Assembly (NCBI GenBank): GCA_000442015.1
Contig: KE560735.1
Coordinates: 6,953-49,532, forward strand
Length of the DNA: 42,580 bases
From: Rozella allomycis CSF55
Taxonomy: Eukaryota > Rozellomycota
Direction of reading: 5' to 3'
Part shown: one piece after another, positions 3,058-41,191 of the stretch
How positions within the stretch are numbered: the stretch's first letter is position 1
Layout of the letters: each line of letters starts with the position of its first letter
Program-made: the position numbers and the translations under genes
Notes under the pieces: model-generated
Told to the model about the DNA's origin: nothing
The model's database searches: none
The model's input: the letters and a program-made list of their open reading frames with translations, nothing else

Positions 3058-4125
3058 ATGGAAAAAGAGAGTTGCAAAATTTTGTTCAAAGATGACACTT
3101 ACTTCTATGCTGACGAGGTTTTGTGCGTGGATGTCCACAGCTTTATATATGTTATATGTGCAACTTATCAACTTGATGAAATATCAGGCAAACGAAACGG
3201 GTCGGTTTTACTGTACAAGAAATTACACGATGAAAAATCCTTTGTATTGTTAAAAAGATTAAAGTGTGATGGTATTTATAATATGAAATTGTTTAAACAT
3301 GATGGGAAGGTATTACTTTTCTCGGCATGCGCGCAAGCCAAGATAAACGTATACACACTTGAAAATGATGATTTAACATTAGTAAAAATGAAATTGGTTT
3401 TTCATAGACTGCAAAATTTGAAGGAAACGAATCTGATTTATTTTTGTCGATTGATACCATGAACTCATTGAACGAACTGTTCGTAGTCGCTTCCAACAAT
3501 ATTGGCATGATAAGTGTATATAAATACTATGGAGAATCATTTGAATGTGTTATAGAATGGAAAGCTCATCATTATGAAACTTGGGCTGTGTGTTTTGAGG
3601 TTGGAAACAATAGTGAAGTCTTTTCTGGTGCAGATGACGGTGCGCTTGTAAGATGGAAGTTGGATTATAGTACGAATAATGCATATCCACTAAAAAAGAA
3701 GCAGTAGTTAAGTAATTGACATTACATAGGCATGAAATGGGAATATGCTCAATTCTAAATCATCCTAGTGATTCTAATCTTCTAGCGTATGGGAGTTATG
3801 ATGAGCATGTTCGTATACTGAACAAAGATACAAGCCAAATAATTTATAGCGTTAATACGAACGGCGGTGTCTGGCGATTTAATTTCAGTCCCAACGACGA
3901 GAATCTCATTGCTACAGCCTCTATGCATGGTGGGGTCTGTATAATCAATATTAAAGAACGTAAAGTTATTTCATAGAATGAAATTTAGAGAAAATCCTTC
4001 AAAATTTTCGAGGTCATGAGTCTATAGCGTATGGCGTAGATTGGATTGATTCAACAACATTAGCCTCTTGCTCATTTTATGATCACACATTTTTAATTTG
4101 GACTTATCTAGATAATAGAGTATAA
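3058..4125 (+). CDS. DPH7: Diphthine methylesterase DPH7 (WD-repeat)
   Basis: DPH7 removes the methyl ester from methylated diphthine on elongation factor 2 before the final amidation of diphthamide. Four exons (introns 3382-3407, 3704-3729, and a 29-nt one near 3950-3990) give 328 residues with WD40 repeats. Family motifs are clear: WKAHHYETWAVCF, SGADDGALVRWKL, HEMGICSI, YGSYDEHVRI, GGVWRFNFSP, then GHESIAYGVDW and ASCSFYDHTFLIW near the C-terminus. The start is the ATG at 3058; the frame upstream of it has only a TTG. No other diphthamide gene lies in the window. Confidence 0.9.
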
Positions 4126-4217
4126 TAAGCTTTAATAAAGCATTTTAGTAGCAATGATGTGCTTAATTTGAGTAATATTGTTCTTTGAGTCGTTTCATTG
4201 TTTTGTTGGATACCGAA

Positions 4218-4673
4218 ATGGATGTGGACTACTTGAAGCAAACAGTGGCATTGCCTTTAAAGAAGGCAATTTTGCAGACAACAATTGTTCAACCAGTGGA
4301 TCCAATTGAATTCATGGCCCAATATTTACTTTCCCATACAAAATACGAAAAAGCTAGAGATCTTGAAACCACTGTGAAAAAAGATTTCCAGACCAGACTT
4401 AATGACATCCATGAACTAAAGAAAATCCACAATAGAAAGAACGCCGAGCTATCTACGGAAGAAAAACCGGAATCATCAGATGTTCTTGTAGAAAATGAAA
4501 AGCATTTAATAGATGAATCTAAGCCCGATACAGTAACAATTGAAAGTCCAAAGGAGAATACGGAAGAACTAGAAGAAGCTGTTATCGAGAGCAGTTTAAG
4601 TAATAAAGACAGTAGAGTGGCACAAGACGAGCAAGTTAATCCTGATGCCGAAGAAAGCGCTCAAGATGTATGA
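4218..4673 (+). CDS. Dpy-30 motif protein with acidic tail
   Basis: Intronless gene for a 151-residue protein. The N-terminus carries a Dpy-30 motif (about residues 4-42; YLKQTVALPLKKAILQT followed by PVDPIEFMAQYLL), the dimerisation helix pair that binds amphipathic helices of partners. After it come a charged coiled-coil (about 50-85) and a Glu/Asp/Ser-rich tail. Having the motif at the N-terminus followed by a coiled coil resembles animal DYDC proteins and flagellar radial-spoke-type Dpy-30 proteins more than yeast Sdc1 (COMPASS), where the motif is C-terminal. A flagellar role would fit the AK9 gene in this window, but a COMPASS role cannot be excluded. It precedes endonuclease V by 66 bp on the same strand. 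Confidence 0.72.
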   Translation: MDVDYLKQTVALPLKKAILQTTIVQPVDPIEFMAQYLLSHTKYEKARDLETTVKKDFQTRLNDIHELKKIHNRKNAELSTEEKPESSDVLVENEKHLIDESKPDTVTIESPKENTEELEEAVIESSLSNKDSRVAQDEQVNPDAEESAQDV

Positions 4674-4739
4674 AAGATTGGGAATGTCAATAAAAAGTCT
4701 TAAATTTCGCTTATTATTACCCTGACTGTGGCTTTTATC

Positions 4740-5330
4740 ATGTCAACAGTTATAGCGGGTTTTGATACTTCCTTTACGTCAACTAAATCCATAGCAGCAA
4801 TCGTAATTTTAGAATATCCTTCTTTTAAAGTTCTATACCAAAATTATCTTGTTTATGAGCAGTCGATGGAATACAAAGCTGGATTTTTAGGACAAAAAGA
4901 GTGTCCTAAATATTTCTCATTATTGAATTCCAGTCCTATAAAACCCGACATAATTTTTGTTGACGGTTTCGGGCTTTTACATCCAGAAAAATATGGTTCG
5001 GCAACAAGACTTGGAACCACTGTTGAAATACCTACAATTGGTGTTGCTAAAAACTTAATGGAAACTGTTGTTTCTGTCAGTAGGGACGATTTGAAAAGTT
5101 CACAGGAAAACATGGTTTACCTTCCATCGTCTTCAACAAATGAGATATTAGGAGTTGCTTGGAGAAATCCTCCCAAGTTTAGTAAATATATATACATTAG
5201 TATTGGATGGGGATTATTACTTGAGGAATGTATCGATTGGACTAGGAAGTGCTGTATTCATAGGATACCAGAGCCTATCCGGCTGGCCGATTTATATTCC
5301 CGTAGCATTGCAAGAGAAATAGAAGCTTAA
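4740..5330 (+). CDS. Endonuclease V
   Basis: Endonuclease V cleaves one phosphodiester 3' of inosine, mainly in RNA in eukaryotes. The intronless 196-residue frame has the family core: AGFDTSF with metal ligand Asp9, FLGQKECP with Glu54, and IIFVDGFGLLHPEKYG with Asp75 and His81. The IPTIGVAKNL strand and a C-terminal RIPEPIRLADLYSR follow. The usual VDGNG or VDGHG loop reads VDGFG. The first 25-30 residues seen in bacterial and animal enzymes are missing: the frame begins almost directly on the first core strand, so the N-terminus may be short or an upstream exon was missed. A decayed second copy of this gene lies at 8998-9231. Confidence 0.88.
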   Translation: MSTVIAGFDTSFTSTKSIAAIVILEYPSFKVLYQNYLVYEQSMEYKAGFLGQKECPKYFSLLNSSPIKPDIIFVDGFGLLHPEKYGSATRLGTTVEIPTIGVAKNLMETVVSVSRDDLKSSQENMVYLPSSSTNEILGVAWRNPPKFSKYIYISIGWGLLLEECIDWTRKCCIHRIPEPIRLADLYSRSIAREIEA

Positions 5331-5354
5331 ATAATATTAATGAATTTTATGAAT

Positions 5355-5582
5355 TTATTTTGCGTCGTGTCGAACCTTTTTGAATAAAATTATCTCTCTT
5401 GGAACTCCTGCCTCAAATATTCTGGCATCCAAAATTTCAATTTTATATCCATTCATTAAATATATTTTATGAAAATGCTGGTAGATCCACCTAGCCCAAG
5501 GTCACGATTAAAATCCCATTTTCGTAAGTGCATGATGAAAAAGACGCAATAATGAATCATACTAAGTCATATATTTTTTCCT
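5355..5582 (-). pseudogene. Degenerate 3' fragment of METTL18
   Basis: This stretch aligns with the 3' end of the intact METTL18 gene (9257-9512) in the same orientation and at the same distance from the end of the endonuclease V sequence. The first 100 bp next to the stop codon are almost identical to the intact copy. Beyond that it has lost bases, including the region of the AKRYYFGLGG motif, so the frame is broken. The match then jumps to bHLH-derived sequence at 5588. It is a relic of the duplicated block. Confidence 0.8.
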
Positions 5583-5587
5583 AGTGG

Positions 5588-5757
5588 TTTTAATTCAAAT
5601 GATTCTGGAGAACGCGGTGTCTAGAATTTAATCGTTCCCATTCTCAAATCCACTGAATGTTGTAGTGAAGAAGTTATTGGAATCATATTTGACCAATCAA
5701 GAAGCGTTTAGGGTCTGTAAGCAACGGATAAACAGAATTGGAAAGGTTCACCATAAA
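5588..5757 (-). pseudogene. Degenerate fragments of the bHLH-zipper gene
   Basis: Two pieces of the N-terminal part of the bHLH gene are fused here: about 5588-5633 matches 11289-11338, and about 5638-5757 matches 11571-11710, with the coding sequence between them deleted. Small indels and an internal stop break the frame, and the initiating ATG pair is altered (CAC in place of CAT on the plus strand). With the METTL18 fragment next to it, this marks the left copy of the tandem duplication. Confidence 0.8.
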
Positions 5758-5837
5758 CTACAAGAGTTGTATTGCCCGCACCAGGCTGTGCTTTTAAACC
5801 GATAAAATGTAAACAGAAATGGATCATTTATTCAACT

Positions 5838-7780
5838 TTATTTTAACACTTTTCGGCAATTCTGGTACGATCTGATGGAACCCAAAACTTTCCAAAGTTT
5901 GTGATAAACATTCTTCAGGTAGACAACTGCAACATTTTCTTCATCATGAGTGAAATCATCGCTTGCTACAAACAAACCTTCAATCGATAAGTGATTTTCA
6001 TCCGCAATGGGTTTCCAGGTTTCGAAAAATCTAGTCCATGAATTGTAAGTGCTGGCGATAGTCACCTGGATTCCAACAATTGCCGTCTCAGTCACTAAAA
6101 CCATATCAACGCCAGCATAATTGTAAATATGTGGGTCATACAATCTCCAATGATCTTGTGTAGAAGGAATGAATGTACCCTTCTCCCTCCCAGGCATGAA
6201 AAACTTTCTCTCTATCACGATGTAATTCTTTTTAATATACTTTGATATTCCATCTCTGCAGACTACTGCTTTAATAACGTCACCTACCAAAAAGCAAAAA
6301 CTAGATCCATTGAGAGTGTAGCCTTTCAAGAGATGCGGCCAATTTGTTATGATCTGATTATCAGCTGCCTTCATTTTCCAAACAGAATATAGCAGGGTGG
6401 TTGATATTTCACCTGTTGCCAACAATTGGCCATGATTCACATAAAAGAAGCGACGGTCAATATGGTCTTTCTCAATAACCATTGACTTTGAAAGTAGGGC
6501 ATAATAAACCTTCCAAACAATCGCAGCGTCAAAAGGCTTGTAAAATTGAACCAGGCAGTCTTTGAATTTCTTAATTCTGATGTCTGCCATCACAGCTTCC
6601 ACAAGTGAATCCCACGTAATGTTCTCGTGATAAAGCGATTCGAAGATGGAAAGATATAATGGGACCCGGCCAGTCAAGCGCACTAGTTCATCTTTGTTTA
6701 CTTCAAATAGTTTCCGATTCAAGGTTTCTGTTTGATTCTTTATCCATTCACTAAATTCCTCTTCGTCAAATCCGCCATAAAAGAAAATGTTGGTCTCGCT
6801 TTGTTCCTTGTTCTTCATCAAATTCCACACAGTTGAGTTCATTGACATTCCCTTGACAATACATTTCATAGGCCCAAACAGCTCAAAAAATCGGTGCCTA
6901 ATAGACTCGTACTCTTTCGCATCAATTGAGTTCCATTGGTCAGCAATCACAATCCATTTGTACTTGTTAGTCGCAATTATCGCACAAACTTGATCATAAT
7001 TGGAGACACTTGGGAACAGCATTTTAAATGCCAAAAAAATTGTTTTCTTATAGTCAGTCAATAACTGGCTGCAACTAGGGATGTAAATAACAGGATACTT
7101 TTCTTTTGTCAATTGAGCTGCCAAGGCTGCTAACATATACGATTTTCCAAAGCCAACAGTTCCAATAACATTCACACATGAACTTGACGGGCCATTGCGC
7201 GTCTCTTTAATTGTTTTCCAAAGAGATTGAAGGCAATTTCTTCCCTGGTATGTAAAACATCTATCTTTGTCCAAGGAAAAGAGATCGGTTTCTTGTATTA
7301 TTGACGCAAAAGGGACAGACATAATATGTTTCAGAGCCAATAAATTTTCCTTTACATTGCGAATGCCAGAGAGTAACTTGGCACTACTGAAATCGTTAGA
7401 TATCTCCGCGGTTCCCAAAGTCCCTTCTAACTTTACATTATTCGCATAGTTTTACCAGAAGGAGCATCGTTACTTTTTTTTTCTATAAAATCATCGAAAG
7501 CAAGCTTCATCTTTTTTGGTGCGAAATCTTCTGTATGTAAGGATTTCACACTTTCAGCCCCTAAATATTATCAACCAGTAACTGGATCCTTACTTTTTCG
7601 GTGTATATAGTTGTAGATAGCACGTCCCTCTGATCCAAACTCGGCGACCCAATCCTCTTTGGTAAAGTCCTTTAAAACTTCAAAGGAAAATTTTTGGAAA
7701 AAGGACTTAATTGATTTCACTTGTGATTCATTGCTTAGGTTGACCTCTATCCACTGAATGAGTTGTTCTTTGTTTTCCAT
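5838..7780 (-). CDS. Crinkler (CRN)-type protein: helical N-domain, P-loop NTPase, REase-fold domain
   Basis: Three exons (introns of 33 and 29 nt near 7569-7602 and 7421-7450) give 626 residues from the ATG at 7780. The first 62 residues form a SAM-like helical domain (KEQLIQWIEVN, then FTKEDWVAEFG, then AIYNYIHRK). A linker follows. Next is a STAND/AAA-like NTPase with Walker A GTVGFGKS (about 186-193) and a Walker B strand WIVIAD (Asp about 260). The C-terminus has a PD-(D/E)XK-like core, GVDMVLV (Asp about 538) and GIQVT (Gln about 551), with Gln in place of the usual acidic residue. This architecture is known from CRN effectors of oomycetes, chytrids and other protists. The frame stays open upstream of 7780 and the decayed second copy matches there, so a further 5' exon (possible ATG at 7929, unusual GTC donor) is likely. 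Confidence 0.8.
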
Positions 7781-7929
7781 GTTGTGACAGGGGTATTGAA
7801 AAGCTTTGATTGGGGTATCGACAATTTTTTTAAATAATTCAACTTGTCTAATGTCTTATTGATCAATGAAAATGTTCTGAACAAATCAAGGCGCCGACCT
7901 GATTTTCCAATTTGTTTCGTTTGAAGCAT

Positions 7930-8216
7930 TAATTTAACTAGCGGTTGTACTCGCTTCGCAGTTCGCTCGCATTAAAAAATTGATTTTAAATATTTTCGCT
8001 ATTTTTCACAAAGCATCGTATGATTTTGCAATTTGATAAATTAATAAGCATCTACACTCCATATTTGCGCTTTACAAAAATCACTTTTTTCTAGAGGTTT
8101 TCATCGCTTCGCTCACATTAATAGATTCACATAAGTTAGCACATATGGGCTATGGCCACGGGTTCCAACCACATTGTCCATAGTTAAGTTTGTACTCGCT
8201 TCACTAGCATTCGTTT
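7930..8216. repeat. Spacer with short CGCTTCG-type direct repeats
   Basis: No gene is visible. Three related short words recur here on the plus strand: TGTACTCGCTTCGCAG at 7946, ATCGCTTCGCTCACATTA at 8103 and TGTACTCGCTTCACTAG at 8191. The first and third copies are about 245 bp apart and flank the 5' side of the CRN gene and of the decayed CRN copy. They may be remnants of the shared upstream region of two tandem CRN genes rather than a mobile-element end. Confidence 0.4.
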
Positions 8217-8641
8217 CTACAGTGCCTTCTAACTTCGCATTAGTCTCTTATTTTACCTGTCGGAGAATTGTTAGCACTGTGGACCAATAACCATAAGGTT
8301 GCTTATCCCATTGACATTCGTTCAAAGCAAACAATGACTCATAAGGAGAGTTTATGGTGAAAGTCTTGATACATTCCTTCAGTGTTTTATTCGAACAGTT
8401 GCCTTAAACCCAATCCAAGAGCTGTTGTTTGCTCGATATTTTTTGACAGGTATTGTCTTTTTTCAAATGAAGAAATATTTCGATTGTTGTAATGTTGTTG
8501 AACACTATATTTTTTAATAAGTTAAAAAAAATATTTAATGAGTAAATTTTTCTTCAAAACTTCAAGAGCGTAAGAATGAGCCATGAGAATGTCTATTTCT
8601 TCCTTCAAAGGCTTCCCTAGGTTTAACGTTTCAAAGAACAT
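8217..8641 (-). pseudogene. Decayed 5' part of a second CRN gene
   Basis: On the minus strand this region encodes a broken relative of the N-terminal domain of the CRN gene at 5838-7780. A segment reading KQQLLDWV, an internal stop, then SNKTLKECIKTF lines up with KEQLIQWIEVNLSNESQVKSIKSFF. The sequence just upstream (LLKNIV) lines up with the open frame upstream of 7780 (LFKKIV), and the junction at 8217-8260 matches 7425-7470. The NTPase and nuclease parts are absent. A short open stretch from an ATG at 8641 (FETLNLGKPLKEEIDILM) may be its first exon. This looks like an older tandem CRN copy. Confidence 0.55.
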
Positions 8642-8997
8642 GATGTATATTGTATACTGATAAACTGGATTCTTTTAAATGAATATTAAACTTTTCATTT
8701 ATGCAACCTATAAATTGTAGCACTGACTACAGGAAAAAAATTGTGAAAATTAGTGCATGGTACATTTAATGAACAGCTTGCACAGTTTTTTGATATATTT
8801 TGATCAAAAACTATATAGAAATTAGAAATAACATGAAATTTCAATGTCTAATAAGCCTCTAAAGTCTAAATGTACTAATTTTACATTAGGATATTATCTT
8901 GTTCATCAACTGAAATTCACATTGGTGTTTTAAACACCCAATATTTTGGTATAGACGTCCATTTTTGGTTCATTGAGATTCTGAGAAAAGAAAAATT
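8642..8997. other. Intergenic, no gene seen
   Basis: AT-rich stretch of about 350 bp between the CRN relic and the endonuclease V relic. No open frame, RNA gene or strong repeat is visible. It is probably decayed sequence at the junction of the duplicated blocks. Confidence 0.5.
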
Positions 8998-9231
8998 CTG
9001 TTCGGCCTGGCACAGTGGGCCGCGGCACTCCAATTTAGACCCAGGGTGTTGCCAAAAAAAACCTAATGGAAACGTTTGTTTCTGTAAGTAGGGGCCGGGG
9101 ACGATTTGAAAAGTTCACAGAAAACACGGTTTACGACTTACGTACAATCCTCTTTGTATTCATTAGATACGAGAGTCTATCTGGCTGGCCGATCTATATT
9201 CCCGTAGCATGGCAAGAGAAATAGAAGCTTA
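8998..9231 (+). pseudogene. Degenerate 3' part of endonuclease V
   Basis: This is a broken copy of the second half of the endonuclease V gene (about 4990-5330). Recognisable parts are the GVAKNLMET region at 9048-9075, the RDDLKSSQEN region with an insertion at 9093-9125, and a near-perfect last 55 bp including the stop at 9229-9231. About 100 bp in the middle are deleted and the frame is shifted several times. It lies immediately upstream of intact METTL18, exactly as the intact endonuclease V lies upstream of the METTL18 fragment. Confidence 0.85.
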
Positions 9232-9256
9232 AATAATATTAATGAATTTTATGAAT

Positions 9257-10175
9257 TTATTTTGCGTCGTGTCGAACCTTTTTGAATAAAATTATCTCTC
9301 TTGGAACTCCTGCCTCAAATATTCTGGCATCCAAAATTTCAAATTTATATCCATTCATTATTTTTGAAACATAGTTTTTAAAGATGTTGGTAGAACCACC
9401 TAGCCCAAAGTAATATCTTTTTGCGGCCACGATTAAAATCCCGTTTTCGGCGAGTGCGTGATGAAAAAGACGCAATAAAGAATCGTACTTGTTTAAATCA
9501 TATATTGTTTCAGAAGTTATCAACAAGTCATAATGTTCCTTGATTTCTTCATTATGAGACAAATCATCCCAGTCTCCAGGTATAAATCTATTATTGTTGA
9601 TTTTCTCATAATCATCGAGATTTATACGAAATTCTAAACTTTGAGTATCAATTATATTGTTGTTTAGCAGAATATTAGGTATCGTCACTGATTTTAGGAC
9701 TTGTTCATTCTATTTTAAGACACTCAAGGTATTACAAAATCTTGAAAATCTACAGTACAGTTTCGATATTTTGATAGATAAATTCCTGGAAGCCCTGCGC
9801 CGCATCCAATTTCAATACACGTTTTGCCTTCACAGGTCGCTATATCCAAATCCGCTAAATATTGAACCAAGTCTAAGGATGCTTCCCATACCTTCAGACC
9901 TCCTTCGTAAACTCCTGGAATTAAATCTTTTTTGTCGCAGATGCTTTGGACTACACCTTTATCGGCGAAATTTTCCTCGTTCTTTGCTATATCTACTTCA
10001 ACATCGGACAGTGTGCGCTTCCATAATAATATTTCTTCGCCAAAAGTAATATTTTCAATTTCAACGTGTAATGGCGCCTGTTATCAACGGCTTTATGTAT
10101 TACTTTCTCGACTTTTATGAAAGGCATACCAGCCACAAATTTTTGTTGTAGGTCGCCAGGGGATGAGTCATGCAT
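9257..10175 (-). CDS. METTL18: METTL18/HPM1-type protein-histidine methyltransferase
   Basis: Three exons joined by two 26-nt introns give 288 residues. METTL18/Hpm1 methylates a histidine of ribosomal protein uL3. Diagnostic motifs are DLIPGVYEGGLKVWEAS, the SAM-binding IEIGCGAGLPGIYLS, ITSETIYDL, and AAKRYYFGLGGS near the C-terminus, ending with a short strand after REIILF. The start is the ATG at 10175 (MHDSSPGDLQQ). It is divergent from the small membrane protein gene, with only 27 or 72 bp between them depending on that gene's start. A broken copy of its 3' end lies at 5355-5582. Confidence 0.9.
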
Positions 10176-10247
10176 AAATGTTAGATATAAAAATAGATAG
10201 TCATGCGTTGTGTATTTTACTTGGTATACTTTCTTTGGTTTTTGAAG

Positions 10248-10442
10248 ATGGTGTCCAATATTCAAACAGAGAATAAAAGAAAACAAGAAATGGATAAGTA
10301 TATCAGATATTTAAATAAAGCATCTAATGTCAACATTAATGATTCTTCGGGGATAAAAGGAATACGAGCAAGTGAAACGGTCAAATCTATCAGTCTATTC
10401 TCGTTAGGTGTAGTACCAATTCTAGTGGCAATATTACTATAA
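10248..10442 (+). CDS. Small predicted membrane protein (64 or 79 residues)
   Basis: A short intronless frame encodes a charged helical N-terminus (KRKQEMDKYIRYLNKAS), a polar linker, and a hydrophobic C-terminal segment (SISLFSLGVVPILVAILL) that ends at the stop, the layout of a tail-anchored protein. The ATG at 10248 is preferred. An in-frame ATG at 10203 would add a hydrophobic leader (FYLVYFLWFL) but would leave only 27 bp to the divergent METTL18 start. I do not recognise the family. Its small size and lack of homology to a named protein keep confidence moderate. Confidence 0.5.
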   Translation: MVSNIQTENKRKQEMDKYIRYLNKASNVNINDSSGIKGIRASETVKSISLFSLGVVPILVAILL

Positions 10443-10478
10443 AACTTTCAAAAAATAAATAGTGCATTTATGAGGTTA

Positions 10479-11703
10479 TTAATTAGAGTTATTGTTGTTG
10501 TTTGATGTAGAGTTTGTGTTTGCATTAGTCATTTCATGAGCAACTAGTTTTTCTTTAAGTTGTTCATTTTCTATCTGTAGTTCAATTATATATTCATAAG
10601 CTAGTTTTAAGTTGAATATTAGCACATACCCTTTTGGAGAATTTCCATGCGGCTAGGCTGTTTATCTTTATCCATTGGAAGCATTTTACGCAATTCTTGA
10701 AAGCATTGTTTGATGCAATCCCTTCTTTTTTGTTCTGCTGCCTTGTGATGTGACCGACGTTGTTCTACTCCAACGCACATGACTTCAGTATTATAATCAT
10801 AGTAGTAGTTCCCAAAATTTGCTTGTTGTCTAACCATTTCGTTGATATCTTCTTGTAACACCATATTTTGATCTTTTAAAATAAAATATAGTCCCTACTT
10901 GGATGAATGGAAGGTGAAGGAAAAATTGTTGGCTGCATCGCCGGTGAATATGTGTTTCCATACATAGGCATTTGCATTTGAGCTTGATGAAAAACCATTG
11001 TTTCTGGAGTTGGAGTCAAGACAGGTGATTGCAAGGACATTGCCATCATAGCCTTATCGCCAAAGTTAGGCGATGCATAGGATTTATCATGGAAATTGTT
11101 TGTGGTGGGGGTGATGGGACTTTTCTGTGCTCCAACTTTCGCCATATTAAGCATCATAGCAGGCGTCACTGGTCTCATTGACGGGTTCGATGCACTGTTG
11201 CGTCTTTCAGACAACGGTTTTTTCGTATAAGGCTTTCCAACTGAAGTCGCTGTAGTAATTGATAGACCAGATGGTGTTTCCATTTTCTGTGGTTTTAACT
11301 GAAACGATTCTGGAGAAAGAGGTGTCTTGAATTTAATTTCATGGTTAGACAAGGAACGTCGTATTTTTTGTACATCATCAGGTGTTTCATTTATCCATTT
11401 TAAATCAAATGATGATGAAGTGAGCTGCTGATGTGGAATTGACTGATGTACTTGTGGAGGCTTCTTGTTTGCTTGTAAAACTGGTGACCCTATAGAAATA
11501 AATGAGTTTAAAGCCGTGGGAGCTATTGTTGTATCCAAGCTAGGTGAGATTGTAGGCGTAAATAGAGGGTCGTTCTCCATTCTCATATCCACCATTGAGT
11601 TTGAATGTTGTAGTGAGGAAGTCATTGGAATCATGTTTGACCAATCAAGAGGCGTCATAGGGTCTGTAAGCAACGGATCAACAGAATTGGAAAGGTTCAT
11701 CAT
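10479..11703 (-). CDS. bHLH-leucine zipper transcription factor
   Basis: Spliced protein of 389 residues (introns 26 and 29 nt). The N-terminal two thirds are a Ser/Pro/Thr/Met-rich low-complexity region typical of activation regions, with several SP and TP sites. The bHLH domain is at the C-terminus: basic region RRSHHKAAEQKRRD has the His-Glu-Arg triad that reads E-box DNA (CANNTG). Helix 1 is CIKQCFQELRKMLP, the loop is short, and helix 2 (SRMEILQKAYEYIIELQ) runs into a short zipper, IENEQLKEKLVAHE. An Asn-rich tail ends the protein. The second intron interrupts helix 2. Fragments of its N-terminal coding region are duplicated at 5588-5757. The family resembles MYC/MITF/SREBP-type bHLHZ proteins; no specific ortholog is claimed. 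Confidence 0.85.
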
Positions 11704-12402
11704 AGCTAAAAATTACTTTTGCGTCAAAAATTAACAGGGGTCAAATCGCTACGCCACTTTTTCTTGAGATGAAAGTCATTTAACAATTTGTAAATATCAA
11801 TTTAAGTTCCATATTGATATTAATTTTTCAGTCACTTCTTTTTTTCCTTTTCGAATATTTGAACTTTGACAGACAGACATAAGAAATTAAGAATGTCGAG
11901 AATTTCATTCCTTTAAGAAACTAACTCATAACTGTGATTCCAATTTTCAAAGACCTCCACTGCTAAGTAACCAAAAATCACCCTTGCGTTTTCCAGTCGC
12001 CAAACCATACCACCACGTGCCTCGTCTGAATTTCGCCTTCAAAATCGAAACAATTATGCTATCATTGACATTAGAATTCTTTTGTAAAATAAATTTAAAA
12101 TTTTTCAGCGAATCAGCTTTAGCCTTTATGTGACTATGTCTATAGCCATTTCAAAAGTTTACATCTTTCAATTGAAATGGTTTTCAGCCTTTCCAACTTC
12201 ATTGGTATTGTAATTCCAGTTTCCAAACGCAATTTATATTTGAGCTATTCATTTGAAAAGTATCTTCTGAAAATTCCCCAGTCGCGACGATATCCGTATA
12301 TGGAAAACTGGCAATTAGACTTTTGCGTTGTCAATATAATTCTGATATTTTCCTTTCCATTTTTCGATTATCATAATTACTAGAATTACTCATTTTTGAG
12401 TT
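11704..12402. other. 700-bp intergenic region, no gene supported
   Basis: This is one of the longest spacers in the window, between the divergent bHLH and cyclin genes, so it probably holds both promoters. An open stretch at 12177-12383 exists but has no recognisable domain and no support from splice sites. No tRNA-like fold or strong repeat was seen. Confidence 0.5.
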
Positions 12403-13287
12403 ATGGAAAATCACCACGACAAGGACCGAGATCTGGAAGCTATCTTTCTTAGTACACATAGATACATCCACTTACAAAATAATAATCAGATGGTTCAAAT
12501 TGAACGGGAAAAAGGAACATCATACTTTCTTTACAGAAAGTGGGAAGACCTATATTCACCGGTAGTGAGATCTAAATCGTACTTGAGCATCAGGAAACAA
12601 ATAATACAGTCTGTGCTATACGTATGAATAATTTATTATAAGTATTTAGATAGTTGATGCCTTTGAATACACACATGAGATATTCTACCTAACTATGTCG
12701 CTTTGCGATAGGTACTTTGAAAAGGTGCAGTGCAAATCAACACAAAGGGCATACATTATTTCATTTGCATGCTTTTTTATTACTGGGAAACTGATGGAAG
12801 ATGATGAGGAACCGCTATTTGAAGATCTGTACAGTTTCTGTAGTTCAAAGTCTATTTACTTTTCAAAGAAAGAGCTAATGGTATAATGGATTCTAAATTT
12901 TTAACTTAGAATGCTGAAAGACGAGTTTTATCTGCCCTTGATTGGGAAATCTCGCGACCATCATTGCAGTCAATAGCTTTAGAAATAGTGGATAAAATTA
13001 GCTGTCGGGAACTAAATTCGGTTTCTAAAGTATACCTCACTAAAAAGATTCAAAACTATATCGACATTATCTACTCAAGTAATAGAAAATTTGCGCATCA
13101 TATAGAATCACCCACAATTAGATATAGTGTTGCTAATGTTGCGATTGCATGTGTGCTGGTAAACCTTCTTGCCCTATTTGACCATACAAACTGGAAATTT
13201 GAAGTTCTCAAAATCTCTGGCATCTCTAACTTTCACATGGATGAGTGCTTAATAGAGTTTAAAAATGTTTTGTACTATTCCCAATAA
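12403..13287 (+). CDS. Cyclin (cyclin-box protein)
   Basis: Three exons (introns 28 and 29 nt) give 275 residues. The cyclin box runs from about residue 60: RKQIIQSVLYIVDAFE, then YLTMSLCDRYFEKV, an AYIISFACFFITGKLMED helix, and ERRVLSALDWEIS before the second fold (about 170-275). The LDRYL-like and L-x-x-LxW motifs are those of cyclins that bind and activate cyclin-dependent kinases, closest in feel to the A/B group. The N-terminus is short and shows no obvious RxxL destruction box, which is unusual for a mitotic cyclin. The assignment to the cyclin fold is firm; the subtype is not. Confidence 0.78.
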
Positions 13288-40755: not shown

Positions 40756-41191
40756 GTGGCTTGTTCGTGAATAACTTATTTAGAGGCTTGTTTCCTTTCC
40801 ATAGATTTCTGAATTACTTAAGCCATATCATTGATTATAAGCGATAATCGATCAGAAAGTTTTTCTTCATAGATATTGGAATCGTACCAAAAATGATAAT
40901 TTGCTCTAAATCTATTCTATCAGATTTTCAGAATGTGTTTCCATAGAGTATAATTCGCTGAAAAGCTGGNTTTCCATAGAGTATAATTCGCTGAAAAGCT
41001 GGCAATATTTAAAAATAAATCAACGCTGCAGATTTACCCTATAGTTTTTGGAATAAACGGCATTTCTTGAAACAATTGACATATTTAAGTAAGATAAGTT
41101 TGTTTTATGTTGAAAAAATATAATTTTGAGTGAGATTTTTTGTTCACCTATTTTCTATCTTCAAATTACAAATTTCAATCACCCTGGCATT
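40756..41191. other. Intergenic region containing an assembly join
   Basis: About 435 bp between divergent genes. It is AT-rich and has no gene. The sequence at 40938-40969 is repeated exactly at 40971-41002, with the single N of the window between them at 40970. Confidence 0.7.
40938..41002. repeat. Exact 32-bp direct repeat around an N (assembly scar)
   Basis: Two identical 32-bp copies, 40938-40969 and 40971-41002, begin with TTTCCATAGAG and end with GAAAAGCTGG and are separated only by N at 40970. An identical overlap on both sides of an N is what remains when two contigs that overlap are joined without merging. The true genome probably has one copy. Confidence 0.85.

What the first reader, a model, noticed from the sequence alone, without database searches (positions are those of the whole stretch)
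4740..11703. Tandem duplication of an endonuclease V-METTL18-bHLH block with complementary gene decay around a Crinkler locus
The left block has intact endonuclease V but only fragments of METTL18 (5355-5582) and bHLH (5588-5757). The right block has only a fragment of endonuclease V (8998-9231) but intact METTL18 and bHLH. Order and orientation agree in both. The two CRN copies (one intact, one decayed) lie exactly between. The simplest history is one tandem duplication followed by loss of opposite genes, with a CRN gene at the breakpoint or inserted there. Such a clean mosaic of reciprocal loss is rarely seen in one short window and may show how CRN genes spread.
Basis: partly seen in the sequence, partly recalled or inferred. 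Interest (0 to 1): 0.78.

Follow-up and report, generated by a model that had tools for sequence, protein, structure and literature searches.

The report
Partial tandem duplication around effector gene
In the genome of Rozella allomycis, a parasite of water fungi, a small stretch holding three ordinary genes was copied in tandem and the spare pieces are rotting away on either side of an effector-like gene; the copy is real, but most of the apparent "opposite gene loss" follows from where the copy begins and ends.

Summary
Four colinear same-strand blocks link 5040-5755 with 9045-11704 (88-94% identical at ungapped sites; best E 4e-116); no other match was found in the 9.97-Mb genome, which is Rozella allomycis CSF55. 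EndoV is intact on the left; METTL18 and bHLH on the right; their partners are dead fragments. Homology starts inside EndoV (about 8989) and stops one base before the bHLH start codon (5755/11704), so both outer genes were probably truncated by the duplication itself; only METTL18 had a free choice. The 3.2-kb spacer holds an intact Crinkler-type NTPase gene, a fragment of a different family member and two dispersed repeats, one retroposon-like. The protein body matches an Aphanomyces Crinkler (36%), but the PF20147 header is absent. New: a 131-nt identical tract over both genes' 3' ends, and a second family locus (contig C168) also flanked by a direct duplicate, of a PIH1 gene's 5' end. Only 2 of 5 testable family loci show this (one is the discovery locus) against 0 of 6 controls (p=0.18), and local duplicates are common in repeat-rich stretches of this assembly. 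"CRN genes spread this way" is a lead, not a result.

The parts
4740..5330 (+). endonuclease V (196 aa), intact reading frame, left copy; the only EndoV match found in the genome
   Evidence: PF04493 E 2e-41; single genomic match; alignment with 10 relatives
5355..5580 (-). dead 3' fragment of METTL18 (left copy)
   Evidence: colinear with 9257-9511; 7 indel events in the dead left segments, METTL18 and bHLH together
5584..5755 (-). two dead fragments of the bHLH gene (5584-5632, 5632-5755); homology stops one base upstream of the start codon
   Evidence: BLASTN with 11289-11337 and 11570-11704; no homology found beyond 5755 (287 of 500 and 234 of 500 shuffles reach the real score)
5310..5440 (.). 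131-nt tract identical to 9212-9342; covers EndoV and METTL18 3' ends and an AATAAA on each strand (5383 +, 5354 -)
   Evidence: permutation P 8e-5 within the block, 4e-4 over all blocks; signals
5838..7855 (-). intact Crinkler-type gene (O9G_003563): header exon within 7594-7780, 33-nt intron 7561-7593, NTPase body frame 5838-7451 (537 codons open)
   Evidence: P0019, 99%; body 36% over 527 columns to Aphanomyces euteiches P0020, which carries PF20147; intron read and consistent with P0019 at that junction, though P0019 as annotated has a shorter header
7937..8212 (.). dispersed repeat R1; abuts the end of the decayed second family member
   Evidence: genomic copies, several ending at 7937 and/or 8212
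8213..8478 (-). decayed fragment of a different Crinkler-type family member, cut off at R1
   Evidence: 8343-8454 best aligned to C131 header (78%); 8213-8273 to exon 2 of the intact gene (76%) and of C156 (77%)
8511..8809 (-). dispersed repeat R2, retroposon-like: 8 of 11 aligned copies share the poly-A end, the other end varies; ACTATAT at 8504-8510 and 8810-8816
8989..9231 (+). dead EndoV fragment (right copy), lacks about the first 82 codons
9257..10127 (-). METTL18-type protein-histidine methyltransferase, intact, introns 9710-9735 and 10078-10103
10479..11703 (-). bHLH transcription factor, intact, introns 10601-10629 and 10873-10898
   Evidence: PF00010 E 1e-12; splicing model

Best explanation
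A stretch running from inside EndoV to the start codon of the convergent bHLH gene (about 2.7 kb as kept on the right) was duplicated in tandem, with Crinkler-type DNA ending up exactly at the junction, most simply by break repair or template switching that captured it. The duplication cut off the 5' part of the second EndoV and the upstream region of the first bHLH, so those copies were dead or impaired from birth and decayed by deletions and point changes; of the two METTL18 copies the left one was lost. EndoV, METTL18 and bHLH remain single-copy in their presumed old order, now split by a 3.2-kb spacer. Later the spacer took up repeats (R2 probably as a retroposon), R1 abutting the end of a second family member. 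The intact Crinkler-type gene was either kept by selection or arrived late. Shown: the blocks, their limits, the decay, the spacer content. Inferred: order of events, repair mechanism, truncation at birth.
For: Four colinear direct blocks, no other match found in the genome. Left-unit pieces lie only left of the spacer and right-unit pieces only right of it. Homology ends at the bHLH start codon and begins inside EndoV. At E 1e-3 no spacer sequence recurs outside the spacer in the window, so recombination between flanking repeats is unlikely. Outside the identical tract the copies differ at 44 of 450 ungapped sites (9.8%) with 10 indel events; at that rate an unconstrained 1,611-bp frame would collect about 9 nonsense changes and 36 indels, yet the Crinkler-type frame is open. 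No N in 4001-13000.
Against: No outgroup locus was available (this genome has no relatives held), so the ancestral order EndoV-METTL18-bHLH is inferred. Truncation at birth cannot be told from later loss of the ends. The indel count is small. If the gene arrived late, its open frame says nothing about selection. The 131-nt identical tract is not predicted by simple decay and needs gene conversion or constraint on shared 3' ends. The bias of changes towards A+T seen in the dead left pieces (17 against 6) is absent in the dead right piece (5 against 5).
Confidence: 0.67

Rival explanations
1. A complete tandem duplication came first, with both EndoV and both bHLH genes functional; opposite copies were then lost one by one, and the Crinkler-type DNA inserted independently.
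For: Same blocks; any duplication may lose its edges later; the spacer clearly received several separate insertions.
Against: No trace found of EndoV before about 8989 or of the bHLH upstream region after 5755, although duplicated DNA still recognisable elsewhere is only about 10% diverged. An independent insertion would have to hit the junction exactly; none of the unit's recognised fragments lies on the wrong side of the spacer.
Confidence: 0.2
2. Crinkler-family genes of Rozella move as insertions that leave long direct target duplications (hundreds to thousands of bases), so this locus and the C168/PIH1 locus are two products of one process.
For: At C168 a family gene (header 4327-4515, body about 2941-4336 in L043) lies between direct copies of the 5' end and upstream DNA of a PIH1 gene: 1581-1930 ~ 4816-5195, 8.0% substitutions, close to 9.8% here. 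No other genomic match to the PIH1 stretch was listed (40 of 54 candidates scored).
Against: 3 of 5 testable loci (C177, C92, C191) show no flanking duplicate; Fisher p 0.18, with one positive being the discovery locus. Of 19 three-kb loci fetched only for R1 or R2, 11 also contain a local duplicate of 80 bp or more, many beside an N join or within a repeat, so duplicates are common in repeat-rich stretches. The two inserts share no ends. Linkage at C168 crosses a one-N assembly join with a perfect 453-bp overlap.
Confidence: 0.1
3. Assembly artefact: two haplotypes or unmerged contig ends placed in tandem.
For: This assembly does hold such joins: single Ns flanked by perfect 32-, 245- and 453-bp copies, and others by copies only 80-96% alike.
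Against: No N in 4001-13000; the copies here have large complementary deletions, and each gene is whole in one copy only.
Confidence: 0.03

Closest known systems
Partial tandem (segmental) duplication with pseudogenised copies
   Same: Direct, colinear, unique copies; outer genes truncated; decay by deletions and point changes
   Different: Crinkler-type DNA occupies the junction exactly, and one 131-nt tract is unusually conserved
Crinkler (CRN / CR) effectors of oomycetes and chytrids, NTPase-containing type
   Same: Body 36% identical over 527 columns to an Aphanomyces euteiches protein carrying PF20147; repeats nearby, as passages of two papers report for Phytophthora CRN genes (PMC5289972 and PMC3726527, passages seen)
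   Different: PF20147 header absent; a Rozella header exon of about 70 residues instead, found at 7 loci including this one; the body search matched none of the other six
Non-LTR retroposons with poly-A tails (for R2 in the spacer)
   Same: 8 of 11 aligned copies share the poly-A end, other ends vary; possible 7-bp target duplication in the window copy (13 of 300 shuffles as good)
   Different: The other 9 copies examined show no flanking repeat beyond chance; no parent element identified

Membership tests
Tandem segmental duplication | two copies in direct order and orientation at one locus | tested here: met
   four colinear plus/plus blocks
Tandem segmental duplication | copies unique to the locus, not a dispersed repeat | tested here: met
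   no other genomic match found
Tandem segmental duplication | reads span the junction | not testable with these tools
   no reads held; no N in 4001-13000
Reciprocal gene loss after duplication | both copies of each gene were once complete | tested here: inconclusive
   no trace found of the missing EndoV 5' part or bHLH upstream region; later loss not excluded
Crinkler (PF20147) effector | PF20147 header domain | tested here: not met
   no PF20147 in O9G_003563; no match over the cut-off in the genome, one weak match at C83 (E 0.024, below cut-off)
CR-type effector in the wider sense (variable header) | body homologous to a PF20147-bearing Crinkler body with P-loop NTPase | tested here: met
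   36% over 527 columns to PF20147-bearing P0020; NTPase family matches are weak and below their cut-offs
CR-type effector in the wider sense (variable header) | restriction-endonuclease-like C-terminal fold | tested here: inconclusive
   model mean pLDDT 33, no fold search made; no significant solved relative (best E 0.2)
CR-type effector in the wider sense (variable header) | export into a host cell | not testable with these tools
   no expression or localisation data

The most novel reading that the evidence does not exclude
Crinkler-family genes in Rozella settle into the genome through an event that duplicates hundreds to thousands of bases of the target in direct orientation, leaving the family gene between an intact and a truncated copy of a neighbouring host gene, as seen here (EndoV-METTL18-bHLH) and at C168 (PIH1); their nuclease-like bodies or associated retroposons might make the staggered breaks.
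Probability: 0.1. Interest if true: 0.75.

Novelty: new member of a known kind. Interest (0 to 1): 0.35.

Why it matters
As it stands it is a tidy example of a partial tandem duplication whose ends fix which gene survives in which copy, a caution against reading complementary loss as repeated chance. The second locus (C168, PIH1) gives a concrete, cheap test of how Crinkler-type genes are placed in an early-diverging fungal parasite: do their neighbours carry direct duplicates of host DNA more often than other genes? If yes, the duplicates would be footprints of insertion.

Tried and rejected
Recombination between flanking repeats or Crinkler copies: rejected, at E 1e-3 spacer sequence does not recur outside the spacer in the window. 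Extension of homology beyond the blocks: EndoV 5' part (144 of 500 shuffles reach the real score) and bHLH upstream DNA (287 and 234 of 500) not supported. Shared ends or inverted repeats of the two inserts: 6 comparisons, none convincing; the C168 inverted-end test, 12 of 300 shuffles, is not significant over six tests. Synteny by contig-length fingerprint: EndoV relative P0002 lies on a contig of 14,165 bp; none of the best 120 of 614 METTL18 hits lists a contig of that length. Structure of the Crinkler-type body: mean pLDDT 33, unusable, no fold search made. Enrichment of flanking duplicates at family loci: not significant (the counts were entered there by hand).

Of 12 family loci seen (C42, C131, C168, C188, C92, C177, C191, C156, C115, C13, C153, C100), 7 were dropped before the count: C156, C131 and C188 run into a contig end; C115 holds only a body-like piece beside many N joins and a contig end; C13 is partly withheld; for C153 and C100 only loci under 3 kb were held. 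A weak PF20147 match at C83 was not counted as a family locus. The C191 locus kept in the count has 10 single-N joins and about 1.5 kb beyond the body; the C92 member has stops in its header.

The local duplicates in repeat loci and the missing A+T bias of the right fragment were added.
Full report
Identity of the sequence. The window is contig C42:6953-49532 of a 9.97-Mb, 213-contig genome. The large frame at 5838-7451 matches O9G_003563 of Rozella allomycis CSF55 at 99%, and the METTL18 frame matches ROZALSC1DRAFT_27503 of the same species, differing at 1 of 272 residues. R. allomycis is listed as an endoparasite of Allomyces fungi (PMC6690862, passages seen). Crinkler proteins are mentioned as occurring in Rozella and/or Microsporidia (PMC6299283, one passage seen).

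The duplication is real. BLASTN finds four colinear direct blocks between 5040-5755 and 9045-11704. At ungapped sites identity is 92.5, 92.7, 87.8 and 93.5%. Searched against the genome, the blocks find only each other. Left: intact EndoV, then a METTL18 3' fragment and two bHLH fragments. Right: an EndoV fragment, then intact METTL18 (two 26-nt introns) and bHLH (26- and 29-nt introns). EndoV is the one PF04493 match found in the genome.

Why the loss looks complementary. Homology in the left copy ends at 5755/11704, one base before the bHLH start codon; the DNA beyond shows no similarity (287 of 500 and 234 of 500 shuffles as good). In the right copy EndoV homology begins at about 8989 (equivalent to 4985), weakly, and firmly at 9045; nothing earlier is recognisable (144 of 500). 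A tandem duplication with ends at these two points leaves the left EndoV and the right bHLH as the only complete outer genes. The pattern is therefore largely forced; the only free choice was which METTL18 died. This is an inference: later loss of the edges would look the same.

Decay. Outside one tract the copies differ at 44 of 450 ungapped sites with 10 indel events. In the left dead segments, changes from the intact to the dead copy run 17 GC>AT against 6 AT>GC, as neutral drift in a 35% GC genome might give; in the right dead segment they run 5 against 5. The left copy also lost about 1.8 kb between the METTL18 and bHLH fragments and 0.2 kb inside bHLH (from the block limits). One stretch stands out: 5310-5440 is identical to 9212-9342 over 131 nt (permutation P 8e-5 in its block, 4e-4 over all blocks). 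It covers the last codons of both convergent genes and an AATAAA on each strand. Gene conversion, or constraint because each copy still serves as the 3' end of one live gene, are the two explanations; I favour conversion slightly, and neither was tested.

The spacer. From 5756 to about 8988 it holds: the intact Crinkler-type gene (minus strand; header exon, 33-nt intron, 537-codon body frame); repeat R1 (7937-8212); a decayed piece of a different family member (8213-8478), which ends exactly at R1 and whose header part is closest to the C131 member (78% over 114 columns), not to its neighbour (only chance matches, best E 0.27); and repeat R2 (8511-8809). A search with 7400-9045 gave 48 matches in the genome (40 of 46 candidates scored); besides the query itself, one matched the intact gene's exon region (C156) and one the decayed header (C131), and the other 45 are copies of R1 or R2. 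Of 11 aligned R2 copies or pieces, 8 share the poly-A end while the other ends vary, like retroposons. The window copy is flanked by ACTATAT (13 of 300 shuffles as good); the other 9 copies tested gave nothing beyond chance.

What the protein is. Its body aligns over 527 columns at 36% with an Aphanomyces euteiches protein that carries the Crinkler header PF20147. The Rozella protein has no PF20147, and no locus of this genome passes that family's cut-off (one weak match at C83, E 0.024). Instead a Rozella header exon of about 70 residues is found at 7 loci including this one. The body search gave 3 matches: itself, C156 (first 62 residues) and C115 (a piece with a stop); it hit none of the other six header loci, so one header goes with different bodies. 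A review reports that CR headers vary between organisms and that NTPase plus REase bodies are common (PMC5289972, passages seen). I therefore call it Crinkler-type by its body, not a canonical PF20147 Crinkler. The structure model failed (mean pLDDT 33), so the nuclease fold is untested. If the gene was there since the duplication, neutrality would predict about 9 nonsense changes and 36 indels in the body frame; the frame is open, so it was selected or came late.

Does it show how such genes spread? At contig C168 a second family gene lies between direct copies of a stretch of DNA: L043 1581-1930 and 4816-5195, 322 of 350 ungapped sites identical. This is the 5' end and upstream DNA of a PIH1 gene (PF08190 E 2e-26), whose frame is open on one side and a fragment on the other, with dispersed repeats in between. 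No other genomic match to the duplicated stretch was listed, with 40 of 54 candidates scored. The resemblance to the present locus is striking, and the divergence is close (8.0 against 9.8%). But C177, C92 and C191 show nothing of the kind: 2 of 5 testable loci of 12 seen, one being the discovery locus. Six control segments (three fetched, 7-9 kb; three 9-kb pieces of the window) have none at 80% identity or more, though two of them contain 68-71% similar local duplicates. Fisher one-sided p is 0.18. Against a special link, 11 of the 19 short loci fetched only for R1 or R2 (two of them overlapping) also hold a local duplicate of 80 bp or more, many beside an N join or within a repeat. The C168 linkage crosses a one-N join with a perfect 453-bp overlap. 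The two inserts share no ends.

Literature. A search for Crinkler with 'target site duplication' returned 2 papers; neither title nor the abstract start shown deals with this (listing only). For P. sojae CRN genes, tandem, segmental and singleton duplication and nearby transposable elements are described (PMC3726527, passages seen). 'Reciprocal gene loss' with 'tandem duplication' and 'fungi' gave 15 papers, 8 listed, none read. Other searches were seen as listings, apart from the four papers named above.

Verdict. Observation confirmed; interpretation partly supported. The event is a partial tandem duplication with Crinkler-type DNA at its junction. The broader claim is a testable lead.

Noticed in passing
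window 40938-41002: Two identical 32-nt copies flank the window's only N (40970). Perfect copies flank single Ns at L043:3432 (453 bp) and L047:5381 (245 bp); these look like unmerged assembly joins. Others are 80-96% alike.
   Followed up: partly
window 4740-5330: EndoV starts directly at the first catalytic motif and has W where 8 of the 10 aligned relatives have H (SIGH motif). The nearest relative, P0002, also lacks the N-terminal part and has Y there, so the enzyme may be altered in this lineage.
   Followed up: partly
window 8511-8809 (minus strand): Repeat R2 carries a short frame (MFFETLNLGKP...) recognisable at protein level in dispersed copies, perhaps the tail of a retroelement protein.
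   Followed up: partly
window 9000-9100: The dead EndoV copy contains G+C-rich runs not seen in the live copy, in an otherwise A+T-rich genome; they look like filler at a repair site.
   Followed up: no
L041:587-2284, L044:2354-4558, L047:2963-4544, L048:1522-4393: Other genes or fragments of the Rozella Crinkler-type family with different bodies; the C92 member has a weak, below-cut-off match to the retrotransposon hot spot P-loop family (E 0.008).
   Followed up: partly
window 9257-10127: METTL18 differs at residue 116 (T here, I there) from record P0022 of the same species.
   Followed up: no
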